A stretch of DNA of 64,000 nt from Sycon ciliatum. Taxonomy: Eukaryota; Porifera; Calcarea; Leucosolenida; Sycettidae. Where the stretch lies: assembly GCF_964019385.1 (NCBI RefSeq), contig NC_088654.1, positions 972,601-1,036,600 of the forward strand, written 5' to 3'. The notes beneath the pieces were generated by a model, which made no database searches, was not told where the DNA came from, and saw only the letters and a list, made by a program, of their open reading frames with translations. Shown here piece after piece: positions 12,600 through 59,900 of the stretch. Positions within the stretch are counted from its first letter, which is position 1; each line of letters starts with the position of its first letter. The position numbers were made by a program, and so were the translations under genes.

Positions 12600-12627
12600 T
12601 TATTATTATTATTATTATTATTATTTG
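12600..12627. repeat. ATT microsatellite
   Basis: Nine ATT triplets directly abutting the truncated 5' end of the R2-like LINE fragment. Confidence 0.9.
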
Positions 12628-12639
12628 TAAGAAAAGGGT

Positions 12640-12870
12640 TTGCTCCCCACACCGGAGCTCGCGCTATTCCGCCGACTTTACTTGACACTTGACTGACTCA
12701 CGACTGCCATCCAGAGCACAGGAGAAGTCCATCGAACCTTCGACTCGGCAAACCTGCAAGAAAGCACCACTCCCTGCTCAATACACAGTGTTTCGGGGAA
12801 TTCACCCCTCATCAGTTGAGCTTGAGTAGGCTGAGGAAGATTGTGCCTGAGGAGCACCACTTATATAGTG
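12640..12870 (-). repeat. Dispersed partial copy of the 476-bp hammerhead repeat
   Basis: Matches part of the tandem unit at 56096-58156, including GACTGACTCACGACTGCCATC, CTGCAAGAAAGCACCACTCC and GTGCCTGAGGAGCACCACTT. It is a single partial unit outside any array and is diverged at several positions. The hammerhead segment (12776-12821) is retained. Confidence 0.85.
12776..12821 (-). ncRNA. Type I hammerhead ribozyme, dispersed copy
   Basis: On the minus strand: stem I GCTCAA/TTGAGC, core CTGATGA, stem II GGGG/CCCC with loop TGAATT, core GAA, a 3-bp stem III (ACA/TGT) and a GTA cleavage triplet. It differs from the array copies only in the stem III loop (CTG for CCG), so the catalytic core is kept in an isolated copy. 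Confidence 0.8.
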
Positions 12871-12954
12871 CTCTCCAGGCTGAAGTGAAGAAAGGAATGC
12901 GCTGCCACGAGGCAAGCAAAACTGAAAATGTGTTTGTTCTCTTTCGGGCATGCA

Positions 12955-14891: not shown

Positions 14892-14896
14892 CCAGC

Positions 14897-22710: not shown

Positions 22711-22772
22711 TCGGTTTTGGCCTGAAATACTGGTCCGAAATAGCTATTTTAGTATCCCAGTATACTATAAAG

Positions 22773-22912
22773 TTGATTATTCCAACTAGGAACACATGCT
22801 TCTTGCCGAACTTGACACTTGACCGTCAAGTTCGGCAAGAAGCGTGTGTTCCTAGTTGGAACAATCAACTTCATGACTATTACCGCCGAAGTCGCAACTT
22901 CTAAGTTGTGTA
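22773..22912. repeat. Inverted pair of 476-bp-repeat fragments
   Basis: 22775-22825 and 22828-22905 are head-to-head fragments of the hammerhead repeat unit, starting at its GTTGATTGTTCCAACTAGGA end and meeting at GACACTTGACCGTCAAG. The catalytic hammerhead part is absent. Confidence 0.85.
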
Positions 22913-35605: not shown

Positions 35606-36025
35606 TTAACAATTCTGTATTCTCATTGCAAAACCTGTCCTTTACAAACCATAATTAACAGACTCTGCTGTAGATTTATCCATCAGATCAAACTGCTGAA
35701 GGCCCCAATGCATATTCAAAATGCAGTTAACTGGTTTAACTCCTCTTCGTCAAGTCGTAATAAATTTAGATTCCCTATTTCAAGAAATAACTCAATGAGT
35801 CGCTCGCCTGTTTTCATTAGCTATTGTCTCTGGGACTCGCTTCCCCAAAAAATGCAATCATGTGAAAACATTTCTGCCTTTGTTCGTGATCTCTCGGACC
35901 ATTTCCCGTAAACCTAATAATACAACTTGACTTGCAGCCCAATCTCTTCTTTTATTGTTGTTGTTCTGATTTGCACTTGTTTTTCTTTCTTCTTTTTTCT
36001 TCTTCTTCTTTTTTGCCATGGCTGG

Positions 36026-36364: not shown

Positions 36365-36366
36365 TT

Positions 36367-36416
36367 TGGCGACCACGCCAGGATACGAACCTGGAATCTC
36401 CTGATTCGCAGTCAGG
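36367..36416 (+). promoter_or_regulatory. Extended primer-binding site complementary to tRNA-Arg 3' half
   Basis: Starts 2 nt after the LTR with TGG, the complement of a tRNA CCA end. Its reverse complement folds as acceptor 3' strand, T-arm (CCAGG/CCTGG around TTCGTAT), variable AGATT and anticodon arm (CCTGA/TCAGG around CTGCGAA). Complementarity to a tRNA thus spans about 50 nt (tRNA positions 76 to 27) instead of the usual 12-18. Integrase coding follows at once. Compared from memory with animal tRNA-Arg(ACG), it differs at positions 34, 37 and 58. Confidence 0.85.
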
Positions 36417-38025: not shown

Positions 38026-38144
38026 AGGGGCGTACGCCGCTCGCCTCCAGGAGTGGTTCCCATGCCCGCTGATCAGCCAACATTCCACACAAAATTGCTT
38101 TTAAAAAGTGGTGTTACAGATGTATACTGAGCGCACGATATTAA

Positions 38145-39039
38145 CCCTTTGAAGCCCAGCTGGGTTTTCTGATTTCCCAGGCACTCGCACCGCGCAGCAC
38201 GCAACCACGGATGGTCGATTTCAAAATTTCATAATTCACTCACCAGCAATGGAATTTCATGATCTGGAACTCCCTGAAAAGCTTGTGATCTCCTCCATCC
38301 AATGATAAAGACTAGACACTAAGCAGAAGCAATAGAAGCGCCTCCAAGTCCCTTGAGTGCAGCTCTATCGCGCCTGAACGAGATACACCACCCACAGTGA
38401 CAATTTCCTTCGGTTCATGACTTTTACTCAACACAAAACAACGATTCAAAGTTCTCCGTGCTGCTGAAGCTCAAGCGGTCATCTTGGTACCCATCGCGCA
38501 TGGGCTGCACTGGTATGAGTCATGGGGAAACCCCATGCGCACGCGAGCTCTACTCGAAAATTTCAAAATTCTAAAGTTTAGAAGTATTCAACCGCGTTCC
38601 GGTCTTTGCCGCTCGGGTATTTCGCATCGCGCTGCCACAAGTGACACACCGCTGGAAAGGTCTTTTCCTTACCTTTCCAACAAGCTATCGTTTGTGAAAA
38701 TCAAAGAAAGGACAACGGAGATACGAAGCTTTGTACAGTGATCTATGCTCAATGCGTACACAGTGCGCGTTTTGGACGAGTATACTCGTCCTTGGGAAAT
38801 NNNNNNNNNNNNNNNNNNNNNNNNNNNNNNNNNNNNNNNNNNNNNNNNNNNNNNNNNNNNNNNNNNNNNNNNNNNNNNNNNNNNNNNNNNNNNNNNNNNN
38901 NNNNNNNNNNNNNNNNNNNNNNNNNNNNNNNNNNNNNNNNNNNNNNNNNNNNNNNNNNNNNNNNNNNNNNNNNNNNNNNNNNNNNNNNNNNNNNNNNNNN
39001 CACTAGGGACGAGTATACTCGTCCTTGGGCTTCAAAGGG
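38145..39039. mobile_element. piggyBac-like MITE with TTAA target (contains assembly gap)
   Basis: TIRs CCCTTTGAAGCCCA / TGGGCTTCAAAGGG, flanked by TTAA at 38141-38144 and 39040-39043. GACGAGTATACTCGTCC occurs on both sides of the gap. True length is unknown because of the gap. Confidence 0.87.
38801..39000. other. Assembly gap (200 N)
   Basis: Exactly 200 Ns, so probably a fixed-size placeholder. The same 17-bp GAGTATACTC-containing motif stands on both sides, so a collapsed tandem or palindromic repeat is likely here. Frames that cross it are artefacts. Confidence 0.99.
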
Positions 39040-39229
39040 TTAAAGGCAATAATGTTAATAAATGCCCAAAAATAAAAGGAAAGCTAGAAGTATTTACAAG
39101 TATGACAAAATACAAGGACCCTTGGCTACTTGGAAGTTCGCAGGAGTCGCTAGCTGAAATCGTAAGTAGTTGGTCTTTCATTTGGGGAAGTATATTTGCA
39201 GCCAATGGAAAAGCAAGGGTGTGAATACT

Positions 39230-41848
39230 TTACTCACTGTCATCATTGCTGAAGTCACTGTCATCACTCTCTGACGATTCAACAGCAGCCACACTGGTAG
39301 CAGAGACAGGTGCGATAATGTTTCTTGGTGCCATCAGGAGGAACTGACGAATCACACTTTCCACATTCACTTGCCTTGTGTAGTGAACATGGAGTAGAGC
39401 CAAGCCACAGAGACGGTGGTTTGTCATCGTTGACCTGAGGTACGTTTTGAGTCGACGAAGGGAACTGATGCTGCGCTCACAGGAGCAGGAGGTGGCTGGC
39501 AGAACAGCAACAATGGAAAGCAGGCGAAGGATACATGGCGACAGCGTACTTTGTGCAAGCAATAGTGCGTCAGGAACACTGGAAGGTAGGTCTGCTTGTG
39601 CTGTTGTTGATGCCAGTGCAATCCAGCGATCCAGTTCTGCAGAGAAGGAAGACAATGACTGATCTCCAGGTAGATCGGACTCGTACTCCGTTGCAAAGGC
39701 CAATGCTGCCACTTTGCATGTCGCTGGGCTCTTCACAATGCTTGCTGGGAGTAGACTCAAACCCATACCTGCCGTGCGCTGGTGCTTGCTGAATTTACTC
39801 TCCATGTGACCAGACAGCTCATCCAACATTGGGATTGTGAGTGTTCTCTCATAATACTGCTGGGGTGTAGCTGCCGGTGCGTTGGCTCGATGCTGCTGCC
39901 TGCCACATGTCCTAGGTGTTGATGGCGTGATGTCAAAGTCACTGGCCGTGGAGATCACAGTGGCCCACCATTTGCCATGTTGCTCTGTCACCTTCTCACG
40001 GGCATCCTTCAGTTGCTGGTGAACTGCTCCAACATTGCGGTATGCTTGGACGATATCCAAAGATGCTTCCTGAAGGGAAGATGTCAAACTCTGGATGATG
40101 CTCATCACCTCTGAAACAATGCCAAATGCCGCGATAAAGTCGAAGGACAAGAGGGACTTCAGGAAGGCACTAGCTTGACCGGCAGTGTTGCTGTTCCATT
40201 CGGTACGAGGAGCAGAACTTATCTCTTCGAGAGTGCGGATGACGGGTTTCATAAGCGCAGCAAATGTTACCAGAGCTGTATGGCGTGCAGACCAGCGGGT
40301 TCGGCAAAGATCAGTCAGCTTCCGTGCCTTCACCTCATCCGGAGTCGATGCAGTTATCACTTCACTTAGCTTTTGCTGCCGTTTCGGAGAAGAGTTGAAG
40401 AAGAAGCTAACCTCGCGCAGAGTTGTCCACATGGCAGCAACAGAATTGATCTTCGATGCAGCCATTATGCACAGGTTGAGGGCATGCGAGCAGCAGTGCA
40501 GGTAGAGAGCCTTGGGATATTCAGCAGTAATACGAGCGGCACAGCCTCGGATATCACCTGCCATGTTTCCGGCTCCATCATAGCCTTGGCCCCTCAGCTT
40601 GGTCATGTCAAGGCCCCAGTTTAGCAGCTGGGTCTTGATTTCGTTTGCGAGAGCTTCACCGGTGGTGCCATTGCTGCAAGCTACGAAGGAGAGAAATGCC
40701 TCAGTGACCTGGAAAGTAGAGTCCAGGTAGCGTAGAACAATTGCCATTTGCTCTGTGTTGCTTGCATCGGTGGCTTCATCAGCAAGCACGGTGAAGAATG
40801 GTGATTTCTTCACTTCGTCCAGAATCTGTTTCCTGATATCATCCCCACAGCATTCCACAAGCTGGTTTTGAATTCTTGGTGTTGTGTACTTGATGGACCT
40901 GCCGCCACCTGGCTTCTTGTGGAACGACCTGGACACAGAGGCATCACCGGCACCAGCACGGAAGTCCATAAGAGCCAGGAAATTACCAGGATTCCCAGCT
41001 ACTTGTTCATCTCGACCTGGATTGTACAGTTCATTTCGGTGGGCACGTAGAGGAATATTCTGCTTGCCGCAGACAATCACCGTTTCCACAATCCCACGGA
41101 GTTTCTGCATGTTCTCCTCTGACTGGGTGGAGTTAACATCCACAAGTTGCTGGACGATGTCGTTGCTACGCACTTGTGACTTGAAATGACTGAACTTTGC
41201 CAAGGCGTTTTTGTGGATGTTCTGTTCAGCATGACGGTTGCAAGCAGTCTTGAATCGGGTGAAATTCTCCAGAGGACTGCGGTAAAGCTGCCCAAGCTTC
41301 GGATCGTCTGGTGCAAACATGACACAGGGCAAGCAGAAGCCGCCGTTGCACGCCGGTGAATAAACTATCCAGGGAAATTCCTCCAACCAGGATCGCTGAA
41401 AGCGGCGCTGTTTTCCATCCGTCTGGACACGTACAGGAAATATGAAGTCCTTCTGCGGCGCACAATGATTTTCGATCACGGATATCTTGTCCGTGTCCGG
41501 CAAATTTCGGGGCACTGGATTCCACTGTGGAAGTCCACCAGCAGAATACCCCTTCCAACACTCTCCAATGTCGGTGAAGTAAGCCTTGCATGTTCCAGCC
41601 GCTTCCAACAACGGTTGGTCTACAGCTTCGCCGACGATTTCTTCGTCTGCGCTGCTCGTTGCAGACTCGACAGCTTCGCCAACGATGTCTTCCTCTGCGC
41701 TACTCGTTCCAGACTCCGATTGCAAGTCAGGTGCCGCTGCGTCCGCATTCTCTTCTGTCGCATGACCTTCGTCACTGGCTGCACGCTTTGCCGGCTGCTG
41801 AAAATAGCTCTGAATAGAGCGCTGGCCCTCTGGATGTCGACGCTTCAT
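39230..41848 (-). CDS. hAT-superfamily transposase (ZMYM1/DUF4371-like), intact, 872 aa
   Basis: Catalyses cut-and-paste movement of its own hAT element in the nucleus. The frame is uninterrupted. An acidic N-terminal region (1-85) has a duplicated EE(D/E)IVGEAV segment. A TTF-type zinc-finger-like region follows (about 90-205, with PWIVYS, GGFCLPC and a cluster of C/H). A DUF4371/RNase H-like catalytic core shows D357 in LADEATD, D424 in GYDGAGNM and the LHCCSHALNLC helix (about 450-460). The C-terminal dimerisation region (about 780-825) carries E791 in SCSCERSISSLRRLKTYLRS, completing the DDE triad. The tail is acidic. Length fits the family (650-900 aa). The element's ends and TSD are present, so it may be active or only recently silenced. 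The start is the first ATG (KRRHPEGQ); an upstream exon is possible. Confidence 0.93.
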   Translation of the reverse strand: MKRRHPEGQRSIQSYFQQPAKRAASDEGHATEENADAAAPDLQSESGTSSAEEDIVGEAVESATSSADEEIVGEAVDQPLLEAAGTCKAYFTDIGECWKGYSAGGLPQWNPVPRNLPDTDKISVIENHCAPQKDFIFPVRVQTDGKQRRFQRSWLEEFPWIVYSPACNGGFCLPCVMFAPDDPKLGQLYRSPLENFTRFKTACNRHAEQNIHKNALAKFSHFKSQVRSNDIVQQLVDVNSTQSEENMQKLRGIVETVIVCGKQNIPLRAHRNELYNPGRDEQVAGNPGNFLALMDFRAGAGDASVSRSFHKKPGGGRSIKYTTPRIQNQLVECCGDDIRKQILDEVKKSPFFTVLADEATDASNTEQMAIVLRYLDSTFQVTEAFLSFVACSNGTTGEALANEIKTQLLNWGLDMTKLRGQGYDGAGNMAGDIRGCAARITAEYPKALYLHCCSHALNLCIMAASKINSVAAMWTTLREVSFFFNSSPKRQQKLSEVITASTPDEVKARKLTDLCRTRWSARHTALVTFAALMKPVIRTLEEISSAPRTEWNSNTAGQASAFLKSLLSFDFIAAFGIVSEVMSIIQSLTSSLQEASLDIVQAYRNVGAVHQQLKDAREKVTEQHGKWWATVISTASDFDITPSTPRTCGRQQHRANAPAATPQQYYERTLTIPMLDELSGHMESKFSKHQRTAGMGLSLLPASIVKSPATCKVAALAFATEYESDLPGDQSLSSFSAELDRWIALASTTAQADLPSSVPDALLLAQSTLSPCILRLLSIVAVLPATSCSCERSISSLRRLKTYLRSTMTNHRLCGLALLHVHYTRQVNVESVIRQFLLMAPRNIIAPVSATSVAAVESSESDDSDFSNDDSE

Positions 41849-42898
41849 GTTTCACAAAGCGAAAGCACCGTCAAAAACACAACCAACCTTGTCAAAACAA
41901 ACTGCAAAGGAAATGACTTTGAGACCCAGGAATCGATGTAACTACCGAACTTCAGACTCTGTACTTTATAGGTTCACGGACTGTGTACTATGGACCGGAC
42001 CGCGGAGCAGTGCATGGCTCAGCAAACACTAAAGTCTAAACAGCACCCAGTTCAGTAGTAGGATGCGGGAGTATCACAAAGGTGCCCCAGGCTGGCCCCC
42101 AGCTCCACTAACACAGACAGTAACATGTTACACCTGTTACTAGTGCAGATGGTAGGTGTGATGTACATGTACATGTACAGGATTGTACTAGGCCTGTCAT
42201 TGACATGTCGGATCGGCACCAGCAAGACGTGTGTGCGGTGATGGCACACAAACAAGCTAGCCAAGCGTGAACAGTGGTGAACTGAAAGCTGGAGCGTCAT
42301 GCCCGGCGTGCAGCCAAGCGTGAACTATGTGAACGCTAAAGCGGCGTGCAGCCAAGCGTGAACTATGTGAACACAGAAGCGGCATGCAGCCAAGCGTACA
42401 TGTAGCACTTCAGGATGTCATGTTTCTGCACACCGCAAAGCTGATCTCGCGCGCACCGATCGGCGCAGACGATCTACAATCATCTGCACATGCGCACTGT
42501 GTGCATAATCGAGTACTACACTGTACAAGTACAGTCAGTACATGACTGTACAAAGTCATGTACATGACTAGTAATCGAAACTTTTCGAATAATCGATGAG
42601 CGTGCTTGTAATTTTCTATTTCGATTTTCGAGTACTATTCGGTCGTTTCACGCGGACCCCTATCATGGGCTAGTATTGTTACTGCATGAATGCATGCAGT
42701 GCGTTCTGAACACAGCTCCAGACGTCTCCACGGAGTAGTACAGTCATGTAAGTACAGGCACAGTGCGTCTGCAGGCCTCATATGCACTGTACACAGTAGT
42801 AGTACATGGATCAAAAAAATTTCTCCGTACCCACATCGAAATTTTTTTACTGGTTCCCGGGCATCCCGGGAACCGCCCTATGTACGCCCCTGGGTAAC

Positions 42899-43360
42899 AT
42901 CTGGATGTCGTCAGAGAAGCCAGCAGGTACCCTGGACGCTGCGCAGATGTCATCGAGATTGCGTTACCTCAGTCGGACACTGGAGCATGTCAAGAATCGT
43001 TGGGAGGTGGAGTACCTAAGTCAGCTGAACAAGCACCAACAGACCATGTCGCGGCCTTTAGCTATGGGTGATGTTGTCTTTGTTCTCGATGTCTTTGTTA
43101 TCGAGTTATTCCCTGGTCGAGATGGTAAGCGTCGTGTTGCCAAGGTTAAGTTGAGTACCAGTACCCTGTTGAGGCCGATCCAAAGGTTAGTGCCATTAGA
43201 AGTATCGTCACAGGACGTGGCTCCTGGGCTTGCCGATACCGCTCAACCTGCTATCGTCCCTCAGCAGCCAGCGTATGAACCGTCAGCACCGTTACCACCA
43301 CCACGGCAGCAGGAGATGACGCGTTCTGGGCGCGTAGTCAGAGCCCCGGATCGTTTTTGA
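42899..43360 (+). pseudogene. BEL/Pao Pol C-terminal domain (DUF5641-like), cut off from its integrase
   Basis: Resumes the integrase frame after the hAT target duplication. It contains RYLSRTLEHVKNRWEVEYLS and, further on, GDVVFVLDV and GRDGKRRVAKVK, then a proline-rich tail ending SGRVVRAPDRF before TGA. The RW..EYL...L..R and GD(V/L)V....PR..W..G.V patterns mark the region C-terminal to BEL/Pao integrases. The stop is 48 bp before the 3' LTR. Confidence 0.88.

Positions 43361-44231: not shown

Positions 44232-44272
<41 letters not shown>
44232..44272. repeat. AAT microsatellite at the left edge of the 281-bp array
   Basis: About thirteen AAT triplets; the array begins immediately after (ACTGACTGG). 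A second AAT tract closes the array at 53399-53422. Confidence 0.95.
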
Positions 44273-44275
<3 letters not shown>

Positions 44276-47200
44276 GACTGGTTTGAGGGAAAGAGACAAA
44301 CGGGAAAAGTCTGAAGAAAAAATTGACTGCCACCACCAGGACTCGAACCAGGGACCCTCGCTTGTAGCCAGCGATGCTCTAACCACTGAGCTATGGTGTA
44401 GTCGTCATCCCAGCAGAGGCCGTTCAACATTTTCCTCAGACTTCGTAACTCACACTTCCTGTGAATCCACACAGGCGGGTGGGACGCAGCCCTCACTGTA
44501 ACCCACACACTTCACGTACAAACTAGCACGCGGGGAGCCCCAAGTCGTAAAATACTGACTGGTTTGAGGGAAAGAGACAAACGGGAAAAGTCTGAAGAAA
44601 AAATTGACTGCCACCACCAGGACTCGAACCAGGGACCCTCGCTTGTAGCCAGCGATGCTCTAACCACTGAGCTATGGTGTAGTCGTCATCCCAGCAGAGG
44701 CCGTTCAACATTTTCCTCAGACTTCGTAACTCACACTTCCTGTGAATCCACACAGGCGGGTGGGACGCAGCCCTCACTGTAACCCACACACTTCACGTAC
44801 AAACTAGCACGCGGGGAGCCCCAAGTCGTAAAATACTGACTGGTTTGAGGGAAAGAGACAAACGGGAAAAGTCTGAAGAAAAAATTGACTGCCACCACCA
44901 GGACTCGAACCAGGGACCCTCGCTTGTAGCCAGCGATGCTCTAACCACTGAGCTATGGTGTAGTCGTCATCCCAGCAGAGGCCGTTCAACATTTTCCTCA
45001 GACTTCGTAACTCACACTTCCTGTGAATCCACACAGGCGGGTGGGACGCAGCCCTCACTGTAACCCACACACTTCACGTACAAACTAGCACGCGGGGAGC
45101 CCCAAGTCGTAAAATACTGACTGGTTTGAGGGAAAGAGACAAACGGGAAAAGTCTGAAGAAAAAATTGACTGCCACCACCAGGACTCGAACCAGGGACCC
45201 TCGCTTGTAGCCAGCGATGCTCTAACCACTGAGCTATGGTGTAGTCGTCATCCCAGCAGAGGCCGTTCAACATTTTCCTCAGACTTCGTAACTCACACTT
45301 CCTGTGAATCCACACAGGCGGGTGGGACGCAGCCCTCACTGTAACCCACACACTTCACGTACAAACTAGCACGCGGGGAGCCCCAAGTCGTAAAATACTG
45401 ACTGGTTTGAGGGAAAGAGACAAACGGGAAAAGTCTGAAGAAAAAATTGACTGCCACCACCAGGACTCGAACCAGGGACCCTCGCTTGTAGCCAGCGATG
45501 CTCTAACCACTGAGCTATGGTGTAGTCGTCATCCCAGCAGAGGCCGTTCAACATTTTCCTCAGACTTCGTAACTCACACTTCCTGTGAATCCACACAGGC
45601 GGGTGGGACGCAGCCCTCACTGTAACCCACACACTTCACGTACAAACTAGCACGCGGGGAGCCCCAAGTCGTAAAATACTGACTGGTTTGAGGGAAAGAG
45701 ACAAACGGGAAAAGTCTGAAGAAAAAATTGACTGCCACCACCAGGACTCGAACCAGGGACCCTCGCTTGTAGCCAGCGATGCTCTAACCACTGAGCTATG
45801 GTGTAGTCGTCATCCCAGCAGAGGCCGTTCAACATTTTCCTCAGACTTCGTAACTCACACTTCCTGTGAATCCACACAGGCGGGTGGGACGCAGCCCTCA
45901 CTGTAACCCACACACTTCACGTACAAACTAGCACGCGGGGAGCCCCAAGTCGTAAAATACTGACTGGTTTGAGGGAAAGAGACAAACGGGAAAAGTCTGA
46001 AGAAAAAATTGACTGCCACCACCAGGACTCGAACCAGGGACCCTCGCTTGTAGCCAGCGATGCTCTAACCACTGAGCTATGGTGTAGTCGTCATCCCAGC
46101 AGAGGCCGTTCAACATTTTCCTCAGACTTCGTAACTCACACTTCCTGTGAATCCACACAGGCGGGTGGGACGCAGCCCTCACTGTAACCCACACACTTCA
46201 CGTACAAACTAGCACGCGGGGAGCCCCAAGTCGTAAAATACTGACTGGTTTGAGGGAAAGAGACAAACGGGAAAAGTCTGAAGAAAAAATTGACTGCCAC
46301 CACCAGGACTCGAACCAGGGACCCTCGCTTGTAGCCAGCGATGCTCTAACCACTGAGCTATGGTGTAGTCGTCATCCCAGCAGAGGCCGTTCAACATTTT
46401 CCTCAGACTTCGTAACTCACACTTCCTGTGAATCCACACAGGCGGGTGGGACGCAGCCCTCACTGTAACCCACACACTTCACGTACAAACTAGCACGCGG
46501 GGAGCCCCAAGTCGTAAAATACTGACTGGTTTGAGGGAAAGAGACAAACGGGAAAAGTCTGAAGAAAAAATTGACTGCCACCACCAGGACTCGAACCAGG
46601 GACCCTCGCTTGTAGCCAGCGATGCTCTAACCACTGAGCTATGGTGTAGTCGTCATCCCAGCAGAGGCCGTTCAACATTTTCCTCAGACTTCGTAACTCA
46701 CACTTCCTGTGAATCCACACAGGCGGGTGGGACGCAGCCCTCACTGTAACCCACACACTTCACGTACAAACTAGCACGCGGGGAGCCCCAAGTCGTAAAA
46801 TACTGACTGGTTTGAGGGAAAGAGACAAACGGGAAAAGTCTGAAGAAAAAATTGACTGCCACCACCAGGACTCGAACCAGGGACCCTCGCTTGTAGCCAG
46901 CGATGCTCTAACCACTGAGCTATGGTGTAGTCGTCATCCCAGCAGAGGCCGTTCAACATTTTCCTCAGACTTCGTAACTCACACTTCCTGTGAATCCACA
47001 CAGGCGGGTGGGACGCAGCCCTCACTGTAACCCACACACTTCACGTACAAACTAGCACGCGGGGAGCCCCAAGTCGTAAAATACTGACTGGTTTGAGGGA
47101 AAGAGACAAACGGGAAAAGTCTGAAGAAAAAATTGACTGCCACCACCAGGACTCGAACCAGGGACCCTCGCTTGTAGCCAGCGATGCTCTAACCACTGAG

Positions 47201-50200
47201 CTATGGTGTAGTCGTCATCCCAGCAGAGGCCGTTCAACATTTTCCTCAGACTTCGTAACTCACACTTCCTGTGAATCCACACAGGCGGGTGGGACGCAGC
47301 CCTCACTGTAACCCACACACTTCACGTACAAACTAGCACGCGGGGAGCCCCAAGTCGTAAAATACTGACTGGTTTGAGGGAAAGAGACAAACGGGAAAAG
47401 TCTGAAGAAAAAATTGACTGCCACCACCAGGACTCGAACCAGGGACCCTCGCTTGTAGCCAGCGATGCTCTAACCACTGAGCTATGGTGTAGTCGTCATC
47501 CCAGCAGAGGCCGTTCAACATTTTCCTCAGACTTCGTAACTCACACTTCCTGTGAATCCACACAGGCGGGTGGGACGCAGCCCTCACTGTAACCCACACA
47601 CTTCACGTACAAACTAGCACGCGGGGAGCCCCAAGTCGTAAAATACTGACTGGTTTGAGGGAAAGAGACAAACGGGAAAAGTCTGAAGAAAAAATTGACT
47701 GCCACCACCAGGACTCGAACCAGGGACCCTCGCTTGTAGCCAGCGATGCTCTAACCACTGAGCTATGGTGTAGTCGTCATCCCAGCAGAGGCCGTTCAAC
47801 ATTTTCCTCAGACTTCGTAACTCACACTTCCTGTGAATCCACACAGGCGGGTGGGACGCAGCCCTCACTGTAACCCACACACTTCACGTACAAACTAGCA
47901 CGCGGGGAGCCCCAAGTCGTAAAATACTGACTGGTTTGAGGGAAAGAGACAAACGGGAAAAGTCTGAAGAAAAAATTGACTGCCACCACCAGGACTCGAA
48001 CCAGGGACCCTCGCTTGTAGCCAGCGATGCTCTAACCACTGAGCTATGGTGTAGTCGTCATCCCAGCAGAGGCCGTTCAACATTTTCCTCAGACTTCGTA
48101 ACTCACACTTCCTGTGAATCCACACAGGCGGGTGGGACGCAGCCCTCACTGTAACCCACACACTTCACGTACAAACTAGCACGCGGGGAGCCCCAAGTCG
48201 TAAAATACTGACTGGTTTGAGGGAAAGAGACAAACGGGAAAAGTCTGAAGAAAAAATTGACTGCCACCACCAGGACTCGAACCAGGGACCCTCGCTTGTA
48301 GCCAGCGATGCTCTAACCACTGAGCTATGGTGTAGTCGTCATCCCAGCAGAGGCCGTTCAACATTTTCCTCAGACTTCGTAACTCACACTTCCTGTGAAT
48401 CCACACAGGCGGGTGGGACGCAGCCCTCACTGTAACCCACACACTTCACGTACAAACTAGCACGCGGGGAGCCCCAAGTCGTAAAATACTGACTGGTTTG
48501 AGGGAAAGAGACAAACGGGAAAAGTCTGAAGAAAAAATTGACTGCCACCACCAGGACTCGAACCAGGGACCCTCGCTTGTAGCCAGCGATGCTCTAACCA
48601 CTGAGCTATGGTGTAGTCGTCATCCCAGCAGAGGCCGTTCAACATTTTCCTCAGACTTCGTAACTCACACTTCCTGTGAATCCACACAGGCGGGTGGGAC
48701 GCAGCCCTCACTGTAACCCACACACTTCACGTACAAACTAGCACGCGGGGAGCCCCAAGTCGTAAAATACTGACTGGTTTGAGGGAAAGAGACAAACGGG
48801 AAAAGTCTGAAGAAAAAATTGACTGCCACCACCAGGACTCGAACCAGGGACCCTCGCTTGTAGCCAGCGATGCTCTAACCACTGAGCTATGGTGTAGTCG
48901 TCATCCCAGCAGAGGCCGTTCAACATTTTCCTCAGACTTCGTAACTCACACTTCCTGTGAATCCACACAGGCGGGTGGGACGCAGCCCTCACTGTAACCC
49001 ACACACTTCACGTACAAACTAGCACGCGGGGAGCCCCAAGTCGTAAAATACTGACTGGTTTGAGGGAAAGAGACTAACGGGAAAAGTCTGAAGAAAAAAT
49101 TGACTGCCACCACCAGGACTCGAACCAGGGACCCTCGCTTGTAGCCAGCGATGCTCTAACCACTGAGCTATGGTGTAGTCGTCATCCCAGCAGAGGCCGT
49201 TCAACATTTTCCTCAGACTTCGTAACTCACACTTCCTGTGAATCCACACAGGCGGGTGGGACGCAGCCCTCACTGTAACCCACACACTTCACGTTCAAAC
49301 TAGCACGCGGGGAGCCCCAAGTCGTAAAATACTGACTGGTTTGAGGGAAAGAGACAAACGGGAAAAGTCTGAAGAAAAAATTGACTGCCACCACCAGGAC
49401 TCGAACCAGGGACCCTCGCTTGTAGCCAGCGATGCTCTAACCACTGAGCTATGGTGTAGTCGTCATCCCAGCAGAGGCCGTTCAACATTTTCCTCAGACT
49501 TCGTAACTCACACTTCCTGTGAATCCACACAGGCGGGTGGGACGCAGCCCTCACTGTAACCCACACACTTCACGTACAAACTAGCACGCGGGGAGCCCCA
49601 AGTCGTAAAATACTGACTGGTTTGAGGGAAAGAGACAAACGGGAAAAGTCTGAAGAAAAAATTGACTGCCACCACCAGGACTCGAACCAGGGACCCTCGC
49701 TTGTAGCCAGCGATGCTCTAACCACTGAGCTATGGTGTAGTCGTCATCCCAGCAGAGGCCGTTCAACATTTTCCTCAGACTTCGTAACTCACACTTCCTG
49801 TGAATCCACACAGGCGGGTGGGACGCAGCCCTCACTGTAACCCACACACTTCACGTACAAACTAGCACGCGGGGAGCCCCAAGTCGTAAAATACTGACTG
49901 GTTTGAGGGAAAGAGACAAACGGGAAAAGTCTGAAGAAAAAATTGACTGCCACCACCAGGACTCGAACCAGGGACCCTCGCTTGTAGCCAGCGATGCTCT
50001 AACCACTGAGCTATGGTGTAGTCGTCATCCCAGCAGAGGCCGTTCAACATTTTCCTCAGACTTCGTAACTCACACTTCCTGTGAATCCACACAGGCGGGT
50101 GGGACGCAGCCCTCACTGTAACCCACACACTTCACGTACAAACTAGCACGCGGGGAGCCCCAAGTCGTAAAATACTGACTGGTTTGAGGGAAAGAGACAA

Positions 50201-53200
50201 ACGGGAAAAGTCTGAAGAAAAAATTGACTGCCACCACCAGGACTCGAACCAGGGACCCTCGCTTGTAGCCAGCGATGCTCTAACCACTGAGCTATGGTGT
50301 AGTCGTCATCCCAGCAGAGGCCGTTCAACATTTTCCTCAGACTTCGTAACTCACACTTCCTGTGAATCCACACAGGCGGGTGGGACGCAGCCCTCACTGT
50401 AACCCACACACTTCACGTACAAACTAGCACGCGGGGAGCCCCAAGTCGTAAAATACTGACTGGTTTGAGGGAAAGAGACAAACGGGAAAAGTCTGAAGAA
50501 AAAATTGACTGCCACCACCAGGACTCGAACCAGGGACCCTCGCTTGTAGCCAGCGATGCTCTAACCACTGAGCTATGGTGTAGTCGTCATCCCAGCAGAG
50601 GCCGTTCAACATTTTCCTCAGACTTCGTAACTCACACTTCCTGTGAATCCACACAGGCGGGTGGGACGCAGCCCTCACTGTAACCCACACACTTCACGTA
50701 CAAACTAGCACGCGGGGAGCCCCAAGTCGTAAAATACTGACTGGTTTGAGGGAAAGAGACAAACGGGAAAAGTCTGAAGAAAAAATTGACTGCCACCACC
50801 AGGACTCGAACCAGGGACCCTCGCTTGTAGCCAGCGATGCTCTAACCACTGAGCTATGGTGTAGTCGTCATCCCAGCAGAGGCCGTTCAACATTTTCCTC
50901 AGACTTCGTAACTCACACTTCCTGTGAATCCACACAGGCGGGTGGGACGCAGCCCTCACTGTAACCCACACACTTCACGTACAAACTAGCACGCGGGGAG
51001 CCCCAAGTCGTAAAATACTGACTGGTTTGAGGGAAAGAGACAAACGGGAAAAGTCTGAAGAAAAAATTGACTGCCACCACCAGGACTCGAACCAGGGACC
51101 CTCGCTTGTAGCCAGCGATGCTCTAACCACTGAGCTATGGTGTAGTCGTCATCCCAGCAGAGGCCGTTCAACATTTTCCTCAGACTTCGTAACTCACACT
51201 TCCTGTGAATCCACACAGGCGGGTGGGACGCAGCCCTCACTGTAACCCACACACTTCACGTACAAACTAGCACGCGGGGAGCCCCAAGTCGTAAAATACT
51301 GACTGGTTTGAGGGAAAGAGACAAACGGGAAAAGTCTGAAGAAAAAATTGACTGCCACCACCAGGACTCGAACCAGGGACCCTCGCTTGTAGCCAGCGAT
51401 GCTCTAACCACTGAGCTATGGTGTAGTCGTCATCCCAGCAGAGGCCGTTCAACATTTTCCTCAGACTTCGTAACTCACACTTCCTGTGAATCCACACAGG
51501 CGGGTGGGACGCAGCCCTCACTGTAACCCACACACTTCACGTACAAACTAGCACGCGGGGAGCCCCAAGTCGTAAAATACTGACTGGTTTGAGGGAAAGA
51601 GACAAACGGGAAAAGTCTGAAGAAAAAATTGACTGCCACCACCAGGACTCGAACCAGGGACCCTCGCTTGTAGCCAGCGATGCTCTAACCACTGAGCTAT
51701 GGTGTAGTCGTCATCCCAGCAGAGGCCGTTCAACATTTTCCTCAGACTTCGTAACTCACACTTCCTGTGAATCCACACAGGCGGGTGGGACGCAGCCCTC
51801 ACTGTAACCCACACACTTCACGTACAAACTAGCACGCGGGGAGCCCCAAGTCGTAAAATACTGACTGGTTTGAGGGAAAGAGACAAACGGGAAAAGTCTG
51901 AAGAAAAAATTGACTGCCACCACCAGGACTCGAACCAGGGACCCTCGCTTGTAGCCAGCGATGCTCTAACCACTGAGCTATGGTGTAGTCGTCATCCCAG
52001 CAGAGGCCGTTCAACATTTTCCTCAGACTTCGTAACTCACACTTCCTGTGAATCCACACAGGCGGGTGGGACGCAGCCCTCACTGTAACCCACACACTTC
52101 ACGTACAAACTAGCACGCGGGGAGCCCCAAGTCGTAAAATACTGACTGGTTTGAGGGAAAGAGACAAACGGGAAAAGTCTGAAGAAAAAATTGACTGCCA
52201 CCACCAGGACTCGAACCAGGGACCCTCGCTTGTAGCCAGCGATGCTCTAACCACTGAGCTATGGTGTAGTCGTCATCCCAGCAGAGGCCGTTCAACATTT
52301 TCCTCAGACTTCGTAACTCACACTTCCTGTGAATCCACACAGGCGGGTGGGACGCAGCCCTCACTGTAACCCACACACTTCACGTACAAACTAGCACGCG
52401 GGGAGCCCCAAGTCGTAAAATACTGACTGGTTTGAGGGAAAGAGACAAACGGGAAAAGTCTGAAGAAAAAATTGACTGCCACCACCAGGACTCGAACCAG
52501 GGACCCTCGCTTGTAGCCAGCGATGCTCTAACCACTGAGCTATGGTGTAGTCGTCATCCCAGCAGAGGCCGTTCAACATTTTCCTCAGACTTCGTAACTC
52601 ACACTTCCTGTGAATCCACACAGGCGGGTGGGACGCAGCCCTCACTGTAACCCACACACTTCACGTACAAACTAGCACGCGGGGAGCCCCAAGTCGTAAA
52701 ATACTGACTGGTTTGAGGGAAAGAGACAAACGGGAAAAGTCTGAAGAAAAAATTGACTGCCACCACCAGGACTCGAACCAGGGACCCTCGCTTGTAGCCA
52801 GCGATGCTCTAACCACTGAGCTATGGTGTAGTCGTCATCCCAGCAGAGGCCGTTCAACATTTTCCTCAGACTTCGTAACTCACACTTCCTGTGAATCCAC
52901 ACAGGCGGGTGGGACGCAGCCCTCACTGTAACCCACACACTTCACGTACAAACTAGCACGCGGGGAGCCCCAAGTCGTAAAATACTGACTGGTTTGAGGG
53001 AAAGAGACAAACGGGAAAAGTCTGAAGAAAAAATTGACTGCCACCACCAGGACTCGAACCAGGGACCCTCGCTTGTAGCCAGCGATGCTCTAACCACTGA
53101 GCTATGGTGTAGTCGTCATCCCAGCAGAGGCCGTTCAACATTTTCCTCAGACTTCGTAACTCACACTTCCTGTGAATCCACACAGGCGGGTGGGACGCAG

Positions 53201-53398
53201 CCCTCACTGTAACCCACACACTTCACGTACAAACTAGCACGCGGGGAGCCCCAAGTCGTAAAATACTGACTGGTTTGAGGGAAAGAGACAAACGGGAAAA
53301 GTCTGAAGAAAAAATTGACTGCCACCACCAGGACTCGAACCAGGGACCCTCGCTTGTAGCCAGCGATGCTCTAACCACTGAGCTATGGTGTAGTCGTC
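44273..53398 (-). repeat. 281-bp tandem array, 32 full units plus one partial, nearly identical
   Basis: Unit start TACTGACTGGTTTGAGG recurs every 281 bp without length change. The last unit is cut after GTGTAGTCGTC at 53398. I saw only two substitutions, both in the block 49060-49300 (GAGACTAACGG for GAGACAAACGG, and CACGTTCAA for CACGTACAA). Each unit contains a tRNA-like sequence on the minus strand. Frames of 72 (plus) and 88 codons (minus) recur simply because the unit does. Homogeneity implies recent amplification or ongoing conversion. Confidence 0.98.
44329..44400 (-). ncRNA. tRNA-like sequence of the 281-bp unit (first of 33)
   Basis: On the minus strand: A box TAGCTCAGTGG and B box GGTTCGAGTCC (exact consensus), D-stem GCTC/GAGC, anticodon stem TCGCT/AGCGA, T-stem CCTGG/CCTGG with one T-T mismatch, and an acceptor stem of only five pairs. 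The anticodon loop is GGCTACA, formally CTA, but it lacks the invariant T at position 33. A T6 tract lies just downstream (complement of 44317-44322), a standard Pol III terminator. Transcripts of about 85 nt are plausible. It is a tRNA-derived SINE head or satellite RNA, not a translating tRNA. Copies repeat every 281 bp to 53392. Confidence 0.75.
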
Positions 53399-53580
53399 AA
53401 TAATAATAATAATAATAATAATTTGAAACTCGGATGTTGAGCCATAAATAAATGTAAAAGAGAAAAGGACATAGTTATTGCACTTTATGACTGTATATAG
53501 TATCATGTTACAGTGATGGAGAGTTACTCTAAACTCGTATCCATATGTCCTTTTCTCTTTTACAATAATAATAATAATAA
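53399..53580. repeat. AAT tracts around a short foldback copy of repeat A
   Basis: AAT tract 53399-53422, then TTTGAAACTCGGATGTTGAG. Next is a foldback of about 100 bp whose ends are TAAAAGAGAAAAGGACATA (53455) and its complement TATGTCCTTTTCTCTTTTA (53545-53563). Another AAT tract follows (53564-53581). The inner part is a shortened family A sequence. Confidence 0.8.
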
Positions 53581-55817: not shown

Positions 55818-56095
55818 TGCAATTAAGAGTATAATAGATGCAGACATGGCCAGACAACTACGAGTTCATGGAATTTTAAGGATTTTTATGCTATTCATAA
55901 TCTATTTTCGTGTTCCGCTCATCAGTGAATAGTATCGGAACTGAGGGTACTGTGTACAAAAAAAGAACATTAAACAGCATAATTAAAAGTGCGAACATAA
56001 AAAAAAAAAAAACATGACAACATGACACAACACTTACATCTGATAACCAGCTACGAGAACAACTTTAGCGCTTCTTTTTGTTCACACTTATAATT
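55818..56095 (-). repeat. Dispersed repeat family B, copy 1 (with hammerhead-like motif)
   Basis: Shares GAGTATAATAGATGCAGACA, GGCCAGACAACTACGAGTTC and CATCTGATAACCAGCTACGA with 59492-59850 and, inverted, with 58346-58540. It is interrupted at 56095 by the 476-bp array. Confidence 0.8.
55891..55932 (-). ncRNA. Hammerhead-like motif, family B copy 1
   Basis: Minus strand: stem I CTATTCA/TGAATAG (7 perfect pairs), CTGATGA, stem II GCG-GAA-CAC with a central C-A mismatch, GAAA, short stem III around TAGA, and TTA as cleavage triplet. Core nucleotides are all present; the stem II mismatch may weaken it. Confidence 0.5.
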
Positions 56096-56234
56096 ATGAA
56101 GTTGATTGTTCCAACTAGGAACACACGCTTCTTGCCGAACTTGACACTTGACTGACTCACGACTGCCAACCGGAGCACACGACGAGCACGTCGCACCTTC
56201 CACTCGGCAAACCTGCAAGAAAGCACCACTCCCT

Positions 56235-56280
56235 GCTCAATACACGGTGTTTCGGGGAATTCACCCCTCATCAGTTGAGC
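56235..56280 (-). ncRNA. Type I hammerhead ribozyme, array unit 1
   Basis: Minus strand, 5' to 3': stem I GCTCAA; CTGATGA; stem II GGGG-TGAATT-CCCC; GAA; stem III ACA-CCG-TGT; cleavage after A of GTA; stem I TTGAGC. All invariant core bases are present and every stem pairs. Cleavage is predicted between 56241 and 56240. Confidence 0.9.
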
Positions 56281-56710
56281 TTGAGTAGGCTGAGGAAGAT
56301 TGTGCCTGAAAAGCACCACTTATATACTGCTCTCCAAGCCAAACCATCACCAGGGATACAAACTTACAGAGACGCTTTGTTTCCAGCGCGACGAACACCT
56401 CGTGAAGCTCCAGGTAGCAGCGTGAGTCAGAGTCGCTCATGGAGTTGTGATAAACAGACGTTGAGAGCCAGTATAGCTATTCGCAACGCTGTCACCTCCA
56501 ACAACTAGTCGCACGTCCGCGTGAGGGACAACAATACGAACTTAGAAGTTGCGACTTCGGCGGTAATAGTCATGAAGTTGATTGTTCCAACTAGGAACAC
56601 ACGCTTCTTGCCGAACTTGACACTTGACTGACTCACGACTGCCATCCGGAGCACACGACGAGCACGTCGCACCTTCCACTCGGCAAACCTGCAAGAAAGC
56701 ACCACTCCCT

Positions 56711-56756
56711 GCTCAATACACGGTGTTTCGGGGAATTCACCCCTCATCAGTTGAGC
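56711..56756 (-). ncRNA. Type I hammerhead ribozyme, array unit 2
   Basis: Identical to the unit 1 ribozyme, 476 bp away. Confidence 0.9.
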
Positions 56757-57186
56757 TTGAGTAGGCTGAGGAAGATTGTGCCTGAAAAGCACCACTTATA
56801 TACTGCTCTCCAAGCCAAACCATCACCAGGGATACAAACTTACAGAGACGCTTTGTTTCCAGCGCGACGAACACCTCGTGAAGCTCCAGGTAGCAGCGTG
56901 AGTCAGAGTCGCTCATGGAGTTGTGATAAACAGACGTTGAGAGCCAGTATAGCTATTCGCAACGCTGTCACCTCCAACAACTAGTCGCACGTCCGCGTGA
57001 GGGACAACAATACGAACTTAGAAGTTGCGACTTCGGCGGTAATAGTCATGAAGTTGATTGTTCCAACTAGGAACACACGCTTCTTGCCGAACTTGACACT
57101 TGACTGACTCACGACTGCCATCCGGAGCACACGACGAGCACGTCGCACCTTCCACTCGGCAAACCTGCAAGAAAGCACCACTCCCT

Positions 57187-57232
57187 GATCAATACACGGT
57201 GTTTCGGGGAATTCACCCCTCATCAGTTGAGC
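57187..57232 (-). ncRNA. Type I hammerhead ribozyme, array unit 3
   Basis: Same as unit 1 except one stem I change (GATCAA for GCTCAA on plus), which breaks one of six stem I pairs. Activity may be lower. Confidence 0.85.
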
Positions 57233-57662
57233 TTGAGTAGGCTGAGGAAGATTGTGCCTGAAAAGCACCACTTATATACTGCTCTCCAAGCCAAACCATC
57301 ACCAGGGATACAAACTTACAGAGACGCTTTGTTTCCAGCGCGACGAACACCTCGTGAAGCTCCAGGTAGCAGCGTTAGTCAGAGTCGCTCATGGAGTTGT
57401 GATAAAGAGACGTTGAGAGCCAGTATAGCTATTCGCAACGCTGTCACCTCCAACAACTAGTCGCACGTCCGCGTGAGGGACAATAATACGAACTTAGAAG
57501 TTGCGACTTCGGCGGCAATAGTCATGAAGTTGATTGTTCCAACTAGGAACACACGCTTCTTGCCGAACTTGACACTTGACTGACTCTCGACTGCCATCCG
57601 GAGCACACGACGAGCACGTCGCACCTTCCACTCGGCAAACCTGCAAGAAAGCACCACTCCCT

Positions 57663-57708
57663 GCTCAATACACGGTGTTTCGGGGAATTCACCCCTCATC
57701 AGTTGAGC
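57663..57708 (-). ncRNA. Type I hammerhead ribozyme, array unit 4
   Basis: Same sequence as unit 1, all pairs intact. Confidence 0.9.
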
Positions 57709-58156
57709 TTGAGTAGGCTGAGGAAGATTGTGCCTGAAAAGCACCACTTATATACTGCTCTCCAGGCCAAACCATCACCAGGGATACAAACTTACAGAGA
57801 CGCTTTGTTTCCAGCGCGACGAACACCTCGTGAAGCTCCAGGTAGCAGCGTTAGTCAGAGTCGCTCATGGAGTTGTGATAAAGAGACGTTGAGAGCCAGT
57901 ATAGCTATTCGCAACGCTGTCACCTCCAACAAGTAGTCGCACGTCCGCGTGAGGGACAATAATACGAACTTAGAAGTTGCGACTTCGGCGGTAATAGTCA
58001 TGGAGTTGATTGTTCCAACTAGGAACACACGCTTCTTGCCGAACTTGACACTTGACTTACTCACGACTGCCATCCGGAGCACACGACGAGCACGTCGCAC
58101 CTTCCACTCCGCAAACCTGCAAGAAAGCACCACTCCCTGCTCAATACACGATGTTT

Positions 58157-58345
58157 CTCCCTGTGTATTGAGCAGGGAGTGGTGCTTTCTTGCAGGTTTG
58201 CCGAGTGGAAGGTGCGACGTGCTCCTCGTGTGCTCCGGATGGCAGTCGTGAGTCAGTCAAGTGTCAAGTTCGGCAAGAAGCGTGTGTTCCTAGTTGGAAC
58301 AATCAACTTCATGACTATTACCGCCGAAGTCGCAACTTCTAAGCT
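58157..58345 (+). repeat. Inverted partial unit closing the 476-bp array
   Basis: From TGTGTATTGAGCAGGG it runs as the reverse complement of the first part of the unit, down to TCATGACTATTACCGCCGAAG and CAACTTCTAAG. The array therefore ends in a head-to-head junction. The switch falls inside the hammerhead, within about ten bases of the predicted cleavage site, and destroys the fifth ribozyme. Confidence 0.92.
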
Positions 58346-58584
58346 CGTACTTTTAATATGCTGTTATAAAATTTTCTTTTTTGTACACAGTACCCTTAGT
58401 TCCAATACTTTTCACTGATGAGTGGAACACGAAAATCGATTTTGAATAACATAAAAATCCTTAAAAATCCTTAAACATTCCATGAACTCGTTGTTGTCTG
58501 GCCATGTCTGCATCTATTATACTCTTAATTGCACTAATAAAATTGCTTACTCCACGCCGACTCTTTAAAATTAATAATGATAGT
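58346..58584 (+). repeat. Dispersed repeat family B, inverted copy
   Basis: Reverse complement of 55818-55985: GTACACAGTACCC, CGAAAATCGATTTTGAATAA, ATGAACTCGTTGTTGTCTGG and TGTCTGCATCTATTATACTC. It then gives CTAATAAAATTGCTTACTCC as at 59858. The 476-bp array is thus bracketed by family B copies in opposite orientation. Confidence 0.8.
58409..58449 (+). ncRNA. Hammerhead-like motif, family B inverted copy
   Basis: Plus strand: TTCA stem I (4 pairs with TGAA), CTGATGA, stem II GTG-GAA-CAC (perfect), GAAA, stem III AA/TT around TCGA, and TTT as cleavage triplet. Stem II is intact here, while stem I is shorter than in copy 1. Confidence 0.5.
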
Positions 58585-59474: not shown

Positions 59475-59900
59475 CATAGCATATCATTAGTGCAATTAGG
59501 AGTATAATCGATGCAGACACGGCCAGACAACAACGAGTTCATGGAAATTTAAAGGATTTTTATGTTATTCAAAATCGATTTTCGTGTTCCGCTCATCAGT
59601 GAATAGTATCGGAACTGAGGGTACTGTGTACAAAAATAGAACATTTTATAACAGCATAATTAATTAAAAGTGTGAACAACAAAGGAAGTGCTACAGCATT
59701 ACATAATAGGTGTCAAACATAGTGCTAACGTATATAACTGAGTGCAGCCACAAAGCAAGAGGTGATACAGTGCAACATGACACAACATTTACATCTGATA
59801 ACCAGCTACGAGAACAACTTTAGCGCGACTACATGCTTCTTTTGTTTACAAAGAACAGTTGCACTAATAAAATTGCTTTCTCCACGCCGACTCTTTACAT
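59475..59900 (-). repeat. Dispersed repeat family B, uninterrupted copy
   Basis: Carries in one piece the sequence that at 55818-56095 is cut by the 476-bp array: GGTACTGTGTACAAAAATAG, CATCTGATAACCAGCTACGA, TTTAGCGCGACTACATGCTT. It ends CTAATAAAATTGCTTTCTCC. It works as the empty-site reference for the array insertion. Confidence 0.78.
59565..59606 (-). ncRNA. Hammerhead-like motif, family B copy 3
   Basis: Minus strand: stem I of about six pairs (TATTCA/TGAATA), CTGATGA, stem II GCG-GAA-CAC with one mismatch, GAAA, stem III around TCGA and a TTT cleavage triplet. Confidence 0.45.

What the first reader, a model, noticed from the sequence alone, without database searches (positions are those of the whole stretch)
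56096..58156. Tandem 476-bp repeat encoding a complete type I hammerhead ribozyme in each unit (retrozyme-like system)
Seen: on the minus strand every full unit has CTGATGA, a GGGG/CCCC stem II, GAAAC, a 3-bp stem III, a GTA cleavage site and a 6-bp stem I closing on it. The copies lie 476 bp apart. Known: tandem hammerhead repeats in plants (retrozymes) and animals give multimeric RNAs that self-cleave and circularise, and minimal type I hammerheads occur in Penelope-like elements. Inferred: this locus makes 476-nt linear and circular RNAs, and Penelope-like elements, whose remnants lie within 2 kb, could supply the RT for mobility. Two dispersed partial copies (12640-12870, 22773-22912) show the family has moved.
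Basis: partly seen in the sequence, partly recalled or inferred. Interest (0 to 1): 0.88.

Follow-up and report, generated by a model that had tools for sequence, protein, structure and literature searches.

The report
Ribozyme repeat inserted by Penelope machinery
A small RNA repeat with a self-cutting ribozyme motif, present thousands of times in this genome, sits in the DNA as back-to-back arrays whose ends look like those left by the genome's own Penelope-like retrotransposons, which points to the enzyme that copies such ribozyme repeats, a partner so far only proposed.

Summary
Confirmed: 4.3 copies of a 476-bp unit, each full unit with a type I hammerhead on the minus strand. But the array is one arm only: an inverted arm (58163-58349) joins it head-to-head. 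The hammerhead core occurs 3466 times, its reversed control 0 times. Among the first 100 hits, opposite-strand neighbours within 1.5 kb are head-to-head 15 to 0. Insertions have two end types, A and B, roughly 33-40 nt apart; 30 of 31 callable cases carry one of each. Target duplications of about 9-13 bp appear in 20 of 31 elements. Resident Penelope-like elements (PLEs) follow the same A-plus-B rule in 15 of 15 elements read, matching the published PLE "tail". One element has 7 units, in both arms, with an insert found elsewhere only in two diverged partial copies, so a monomer, perhaps circular, was copied repeatedly. Best reading: a non-LTR retrozyme copied by PLE reverse transcriptase from both strands of a cut target. 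Retrozymes are known and PLE mobilisation was proposed; I found no printed footprint evidence. RNA, cleavage and circles are untested.

The parts
56096..58157 (-). left arm: 4.3 tandem 476-bp retrozyme units, sense on the minus strand; outer end is type B (..CAACTTCAT|)
56235..56280 (-). type I hammerhead, unit 1; predicted cut between 56241 and 56240
   Evidence: sequence
56711..56756 (-). type I hammerhead, unit 2
57187..57232 (-). type I hammerhead, unit 3 (one stem I mismatch)
57663..57708 (-). type I hammerhead, unit 4
58158..58162 (.). 5-nt filler at the head-to-head junction of the two arms
58163..58349 (+). right arm: 187 bp of the same unit, inverted; outer end is type A (..CAACTTCTAAGCTCGTA|); no complete hammerhead
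56086..56094 (+). left copy of an imperfect target-site duplication, ACTTATAAT
   Evidence: score 4.1, inside the null range: weak on its own
58349..58357 (+). right copy of the imperfect target-site duplication, ACTTTTAAT
55818..58567 (.). host insertion: head-to-head element of a minimal-hammerhead Penelope-like family (hammerheads 55905-55927 minus and 58413-58435 plus), with its own B end (left) and A end (right); the retrozyme inserted into it. Element ends read by eye
59579..59601 (-). minimal hammerhead of a further copy of the same Penelope-like family
22767..22907 (.). tiny head-to-head retrozyme insertion: 57 bp minus arm with B end, 83 bp plus arm with A end; no target duplication seen by eye
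12620..12880 (-). single-armed copy of sister subfamily rz2 (479-bp unit), B end in an AAT microsatellite, with a hammerhead

Best explanation
The locus is one insertion of a non-autonomous hammerhead retrotransposon (a metazoan-type non-LTR retrozyme) mobilised by resident Penelope-like elements. Proposed cycle: (1) unit transcripts self-cleave at the hammerheads and the 476-nt monomer is closed into a circle (inferred); (2) a PLE enzyme recognises the region downstream of the hammerhead and cuts both strands of an AT-rich target about 9-13 bp apart (inferred from duplications); (3) each target 3' end primes its own cDNA inside the RNA, one at site A and one roughly 33-40 nt upstream at site B (the end rule is shown; the enzyme and the priming are inferred); (4) the enzyme runs several laps around the circle, giving tandem arms (inferred, supported by the L010b variant); (5) the two cDNA ends join in the middle (inferred), giving a head-to-head double array (shown). 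The retrozyme would then be to PLEs what a SINE is to a LINE.
For: Orientation: within 1.5 kb, retrozyme cores are '-+' 15 times and '+-' 0 times among the first 100 listed, minimal-hammerhead cores 23 and 0 among the 100 listed, PLE ORFs within 6 kb 5 and 0 among 57 listed matches. End rule: 21 of 22 callable 476-bp elements and 9 of 9 sister-subfamily loci have one A and one B end (30 of 31, p 1.5e-8 if ends were independent). Same rule in the minimal-hammerhead family 11 of 11 elements read, PLE-B 3 of 3 and PLE-A 1 of 1. Duplications in 20 of 31 elements against 2.3% of 400 shuffled flank pairs; 16 outside microsatellites have median 12 bp and 73% AT. Published PLE enzyme: two adjacent internal RT starts matching the 30-40-bp tail, cutting and extending both strands, ATT preference (PMC11167929); rotifer PLEs with head-to-head inverted pLTRs, an optional 31-bp tail and 8-10-bp duplications (PMC3846280, passages). 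A-end motifs: CTACTTCGT shared by rz2 and PLE-A, CTTCTAA by rz1 and PLE-B (shuffle frequencies 0.0008 and 0.023). Monomer template: 7 units in both arms of L010b carry a 6-nt insert found elsewhere only in 2 diverged partial copies; its 6 full units do not differ.
Against: No RNA, cleavage or enzyme data. L015 has two B ends and no duplication; it shares its inner junction with L018, so it may be a rearranged relative. L024 and L025 do not fit; L017 and L032 have one end that cannot be called. Between 1.5 and 3 kb one '+-' pair appears for the retrozyme and one for the minimal-hammerhead family. In L027 the two arms differ (17 against 4.7 differences), so two templates can be used. Many copies may be single-armed: of 62 clusters 40 have a single core and 7 are same-strand only; of 12 of those 40 that were fetched, 4 proved head-to-head. 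Eight of the nine rz2 loci lie in AAT/ATT repeats, where duplications cannot be scored. Later expansion of arms by recombination is not excluded. The reverse transcriptase of PLE-A is assigned by eye from motifs such as RYIDD; Pfam at E up to 10 finds only GIY-YIG, and the only RT matches are not significant (E 0.077 and 1.3). The shared A-end motifs are short, and PLE-A's ends rest on one locus.
Confidence: 0.78

Rival explanations
1. The two arms are made by PLE-driven two-ended priming, but the tandem units arise later by unequal exchange or replication slippage at the DNA level, not by copying a circular RNA.
For: Arm lengths are very unequal and reach 5715 bp; units in an array are more alike than units of different loci, as homogenisation also predicts.
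Against: In L010b and L017 the full units of both inverted arms do not differ; the L010b 6-nt variant fills both arms and exists elsewhere only in two partial copies. PLE-B copies show the same kind of exact tandem period, 2935-2938 bp.
Confidence: 0.25
2. The template is an uncleaved linear multimer transcript of an existing array, not a circle; the hammerhead is not needed for insertion.
For: In vitro, hammerhead mutants of the Anolis PLE RNA still insert, and unprocessed RNA is described as the dominant substrate (PMC11167929).
Against: Outside the one element, the L010b variant is found only in two partial copies, so no multi-unit source array with it is in the assembly. The assembly may be incomplete.
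Confidence: 0.25
3. A LINE or another retrotransposon mobilises the repeat by one-sided target-primed reverse transcription, with inversions by twin priming.
For: LINE-like ORFs are present in the window; target duplications of this size are also common for LINEs (recalled).
Against: By eye no poly(A) tail at the ends printed; both arms start within the same stretch of roughly 33-40 nt; the A/B rule coincides with that of PLEs in the same genome.
Confidence: 0.05
4. It is an ordinary satellite whose hammerhead is a passive passenger, spread by DNA-level mechanisms.
For: Tandem organisation and high copy number.
Against: Fixed ends, target duplications, head-to-head orientation, and insertions whose arms are about one unit or shorter, such as L034 and L037.
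Confidence: 0.03

Closest known systems
Metazoan non-LTR retrozymes (Cervera and de la Pena 2020, PMC7229834)
   Same: Tandem units with type I hammerheads, thousands of hammerhead copies, target duplications longer than 4 bp, co-existing PLE-like elements with minimal hammerheads.
   Different: Unit 476-482 bp (RNAs reported at about 170-400 nt) and GC 51% (reported below 50%). The words inverted and head-to-head do not occur in that paper's main text (parts 1-4 of 6 read; its supplement was not seen).
Penelope-like elements of the Penelope/Poseidon type (PMC11167929, PMC3846280)
   Same: Head-to-head inverted ends, optional tail of 30-40 bp on one end, short target duplications, AT-rich targets, hammerhead upstream of the RT start region.
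   Different: The retrozyme shows no match to the PLE-A protein, and its unit is 0.48 kb against 2.9 kb for the resident PLE-B period.
Plant LTR retrozymes (PMC4918200, seen in search listings only; features taken from PMC7229834 and PMC7761336)
   Same: Non-autonomous, hammerhead-processed repeat thought to move through circular RNA.
   Different: Plant elements have type III hammerheads, LTRs, a tRNA primer site and 4-bp duplications; here type I hammerheads and duplications of about 9-13 bp.

Membership tests
Metazoan non-LTR retrozyme | Type I hammerhead in each tandem unit | tested here: met
   Four complete motifs in the window array; 3466 exact cores genome-wide against 0 reversed
Metazoan non-LTR retrozyme | Unit of about 150-450 bp, GC below 50% | tested here: not met
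   476 bp, 51% GC; slightly outside the published range, descriptive rather than mechanistic
Metazoan non-LTR retrozyme | Target duplications longer than 4 bp where present | tested here: met
   20 of 31 elements; median 12 bp in 16 outside microsatellites
Metazoan non-LTR retrozyme | Self-cleavage and circular RNA in tissue | not testable with these tools
   Needs RNA
Metazoan non-LTR retrozyme | No LTR, PBS or PPT | not tested
   PBS and PPT were not searched
Penelope-like element (as a member) | ORF with PLE reverse transcriptase and endonuclease | tested here: not met
   No tblastn match of the PLE-A protein in the window at E up to 0.01
Penelope-type insertion product (works like) | Head-to-head inverted ends, one optional tail of 30-40 bp, short target duplication | tested here: met
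   same-genome controls
Penelope-type insertion product (works like) | RT starts at two adjacent internal sites of the RNA | tested here: inconclusive
   Inferred from A and B ends; no enzyme assay
Plant LTR retrozyme | Type III hammerhead within LTRs and 4-bp duplications | tested here: not met
   Stem I is the open helix, hence type I; duplications about 9-13 bp

The most novel reading that the evidence does not exclude
Two subunits of a PLE enzyme, each primed by one strand of the cut target, start at neighbouring sites A and B of one circular RNA and run several laps, so that a single event writes a head-to-head pair of tandem arrays. This twin-primed rolling-circle reverse transcription would explain both the retrozyme arrays and the tandem, head-to-head PLE arrays of the same genome, and would give the hammerhead in PLEs its role: making the circle.
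Probability: 0.45. Interest if true: 0.82.

Novelty: new variant of a known kind. Interest (0 to 1): 0.66.

Why it matters
[quoted passage not shown] The insertion footprint here points to Penelope-like elements, and short start-site motifs hint that each retrozyme subfamily may match a particular resident PLE family. It makes the question directly testable with a purified enzyme, gives a genomic trace of repeated copying of a monomeric template, and offers a possible reason for hammerheads in PLEs.

Tried and rejected
Rfam hammerhead models gave no hit, so the motif was judged by its core and by copy number. Pfam PF26215 is not in the library. L061 (PLE-A) showed no similarity to the retrozyme beyond short chance matches, so sequence descent of the retrozyme from that PLE is not supported. 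I first read the right flank as a retrozyme fused to a PLE; the A and B ends and the L043 case at the same site fit an insertion into a Penelope-like element better. L051, fetched as a possible full PLE, holds a piggyBac-like ORF (named by eye) between the minimal-hammerhead ends. Conservation of the hammerhead above background is modest in the 113 units (0.020 against 0.031 variants per position).

Literature: ten searches. No held paper has hammerhead, penelope and head-to-head together; of the five with retrozyme and inverted repeat I saw passages of one (PMC11722881), the rest as listings. Subscription papers and preprints are not held, so absence from print is not shown beyond this. Papers: PMC7229834 parts 1-4 of 6; PMC11167929 parts 1-2 of 4; PMC3846280, PMC7761336, PMC8490949 and PMC11722881 passages only; PMC4918200 listing only.

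Full report
What is there. The window lies at G000:C13:972601-1036600 of a 538-Mb assembly with 313 contigs. TRF finds 4.3 copies of a 476-bp unit at 56096-58157. Read on the minus strand, each of the four full units has a complete type I hammerhead: stem I GCUCAA/UUGAGC, CUGAUGA, stem II GGGG/CCCC with loop UGAAUU, GAAA, stem III ACA/UGU with a 3-nt loop, and a GUA cleavage triplet. RNAfold of the extended motif also pairs the outer part of stem I beyond an AA/AGG internal loop, the place where canonical type I motifs make their loop contacts (recalled); that contact was not tested. Rfam's hammerhead families did not report it. The exact 26-nt core occurs 3466 times in the genome, the reversed control 0 times.

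The array is half of a structure. At 58157 the minus-strand array meets, after 5 nt of filler, 187 bp of the same unit on the plus strand (58163-58349). The sense 5' ends face each other and the sense 3' ends face outward. Of the 20 loci fetched for their high scores (L009-L028; L009 duplicates the window locus and L019 duplicates L018), 19 show a minus arm followed by a plus arm; L025 does not, and L021 and L026 are interrupted by other sequence. A sample not picked by score agrees. Among the first 100 core hits listed on C1 there are 62 clusters; adjacent opposite-strand cores within 1.5 kb are '-+' in 15 cases and '+-' in 0, and within 3 kb 15 and 1. Forty clusters have one core and seven are same-strand only. 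Of the 40, 12 were fetched, and 4 of these (L043, L044, L049, L050) turned out to be head-to-head as well.

Target duplications. With an automatic boundary search, 20 of 31 elements have a duplication scoring 8 or more, against 2.3% of 400 mismatched flank pairs. Five of the 20 lie in AAT-type repeats and say little. Sixteen outside such repeats have median length 12 bp and 73% AT (window GC 47%). Two of the sixteen are imperfect: L034 and the window locus itself (ACTTATAAT/ACTTTTAAT, score 4.1, inside the null range). The lengths can include a few bases shared with the element ends; by eye the first ones read were 9-11 bp. The 11 misses are the window locus, L015, L024, L025, L032 and the six sister-subfamily loci L029, L030, L031, L033, L035 and L038, whose ends the first unit could not reach.

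Two fixed ends. The outer ends fall at two places of the circular unit map: B at about u472-u8 (..CAACTTCAT|) and A at about u31-u44 (..CAACTTCTAAGTTCGTA|), typically 33-37 nt apart. Of 22 callable elements of this subfamily, including the 140-bp element at 22767-22907, 21 have one A and one B end; L015 has two B ends and shares its inner junction with L018, so the two are not independent. L017, L024, L025 and L032 were not callable. The sister subfamily rz2 (479-bp unit) gives 9 of 9 loci with one A end (..CAACCACTACTTCGTA|) and one B end (..GGGGAGCAAACCCTTTCTTA|), roughly 35-40 nt apart; eight of the nine lie in AAT/ATT repeats and L029 in an AT-rich stretch; L038 holds two adjacent elements, both A plus B by coordinates. 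Together this is 30 of 31; if ends were chosen independently, p would be 1.5e-8. The inner junctions vary in position: of 31 listed, 18 have 0-4 nt of overlap, 2 have 7 and 14 nt, and 11 have 2-19 nt of filler (made with the first unit, so filler in rz2 loci is overstated).

Same-genome Penelope controls. A search with the 807-aa uninterrupted frame of L061 lists 57 matches, 47 of them without a stop inside (only the best of 3573 candidates were scored). The frame has a GIY-YIG domain by Pfam (24.5 bits, cut-off 22.6). Its reverse transcriptase is assigned by eye from motifs such as RYIDD; Pfam at E up to 10 does not find it, and the only RT matches are not significant (Drt3a, E 0.077 and 1.3). 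PLE-B, 68% identical in protein, forms exact tandem arrays with a 2935-2938-bp period; neighbours within 6 kb on opposite strands are '-+' 5 times and '+-' 0 times among the 57. A PLE-B unit has a minimal hammerhead-like motif. Three of three PLE-B elements with both ends read have one B end (..CCATCTGTAATTC|) and one A end (..CCTCACCGCTTCTAAT|), 35 nt apart, with duplications read by eye of about 10-13 bp (ATTCGATTTT, ATGTACAGTTAT, CACCAATTATTAG). The one PLE-A element read has the same form, with duplication AGTTGTCTTCC. The dispersed minimal-hammerhead family (607 exact cores) is '-+' in 23 of 23 opposite-strand pairs within 1.5 kb among 100 listed, 26 against 1 within 3 kb, with A plus B ends in 11 of 11 elements read, most of which had been chosen as close '-+' pairs. 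Its membership of the PLEs is inferred from its hammerhead and ends; no ORF was found for it. The retrozyme in the window inserted into one of these elements (about 55818-58567), and L043 inserted at the same site of another.

Match to known PLE behaviour. A purified PLE protein from Anolis cuts and extends both target strands, prefers ATT, and starts reverse transcription at two adjacent sites inside the RNA that bound the 30-40-bp genomic 'tail' (PMC11167929). Rotifer Penelope elements have head-to-head inverted pLTRs, an optional 31-bp tail on one of them and 8-10-bp duplications (PMC3846280, passages). The retrozyme ends agree with this description. They also end in sequence like that of a resident PLE: rz2 and PLE-A share CTACTTCGT, rz1 and PLE-B share CTTCTAA. 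In shuffles, any of the four comparisons reached these lengths with frequency 0.0008 and 0.023. This is suggestive only, and PLE-A's ends rest on one locus.

Template. In 113 full units, differences are 4.3 on average within an arm (median 3), 6.4 between arms of one element (median 3) and 17.6 between loci. Element L010b has 482-bp units with a 6-nt insert; its six full units do not differ across both arms. The insert-bearing sequence occurs 9 times in the genome: 7 times in this one element, three in one arm and four in the other, and twice in diverged (90-95% identical) partial copies. So a monomeric template was probably copied several times into both arms. A circle made by the hammerhead is the simplest such template, but later DNA amplification or a source missing from the assembly is not excluded. 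In L027 the arms differ (17 against 4.7), so two templates can be used. Published in vitro data, in which hammerhead mutants still insert, speak against a need for cleavage in the insertion step itself.

Judgement. The element works like a PLE insertion product and is a non-LTR retrozyme by its hammerhead and tandem form, with a unit slightly longer and slightly richer in GC than published. It is not itself a PLE. PLE mobilisation was a stated candidate in PMC7229834 and PMC7761336 on grounds of shared hammerheads, tandem form and co-occurrence; the end rule, the head-to-head form and the same-genome controls turn it into a footprint-based case. In the ten literature searches listed under Tried and rejected I saw no description of this for retrozymes.

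Noticed in passing
window 44270-53399: About 33 near-identical 281-bp tandem units, each with a tRNA-like sequence on the minus strand (37.9 bits).
   Followed up: no
window 14485-18932 and 31985-36432: Near-identical inverted copies of a LINE-like element (endonuclease plus RT), each beside a tRNA-like hit, suggesting a large inverted duplication.
   Followed up: no
window 37477-43360: Remains that look like a BEL/Pao-type element (weak integrase match, DUF5641) interrupted by a hAT-like gene (DUF4371) at 39230-41851, near a masked stretch of N.
   Followed up: no
L015, L017, L036 junctions: Inner cDNA ends at unit positions 333, 334 and 332, next to the predicted hammerhead cut (331/332), as if some templates had been cleaved and run off. 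L018 shares the L015 junction.
   Followed up: partly
window 56086-58357 and L043: Two retrozymes inserted at the same site of the minimal-hammerhead Penelope-like family.
   Followed up: partly
L009 (G000:C13:456000-464000): A nearly identical copy of the window insertion with its flanks, 570 kb away: a segmental duplication or assembly duplicate.
   Followed up: no
C1:78524354-78538508, C1:97529571-97543053, C7:1365523-1377181: Uninterrupted PLE-B ORFs in exact tandem (2935-2938 bp), some head-to-head; suggests recent PLE activity.
   Followed up: partly
retrozyme unit position 246 (sense = window minus strand): TATATAAG lies 52 nt upstream of CTGATGA in the unit, a possible promoter, and also occurs in the sister subfamily unit.
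   Followed up: no
L038: Two head-to-head rz2 elements lie side by side within 1.5 kb.
   Followed up: no
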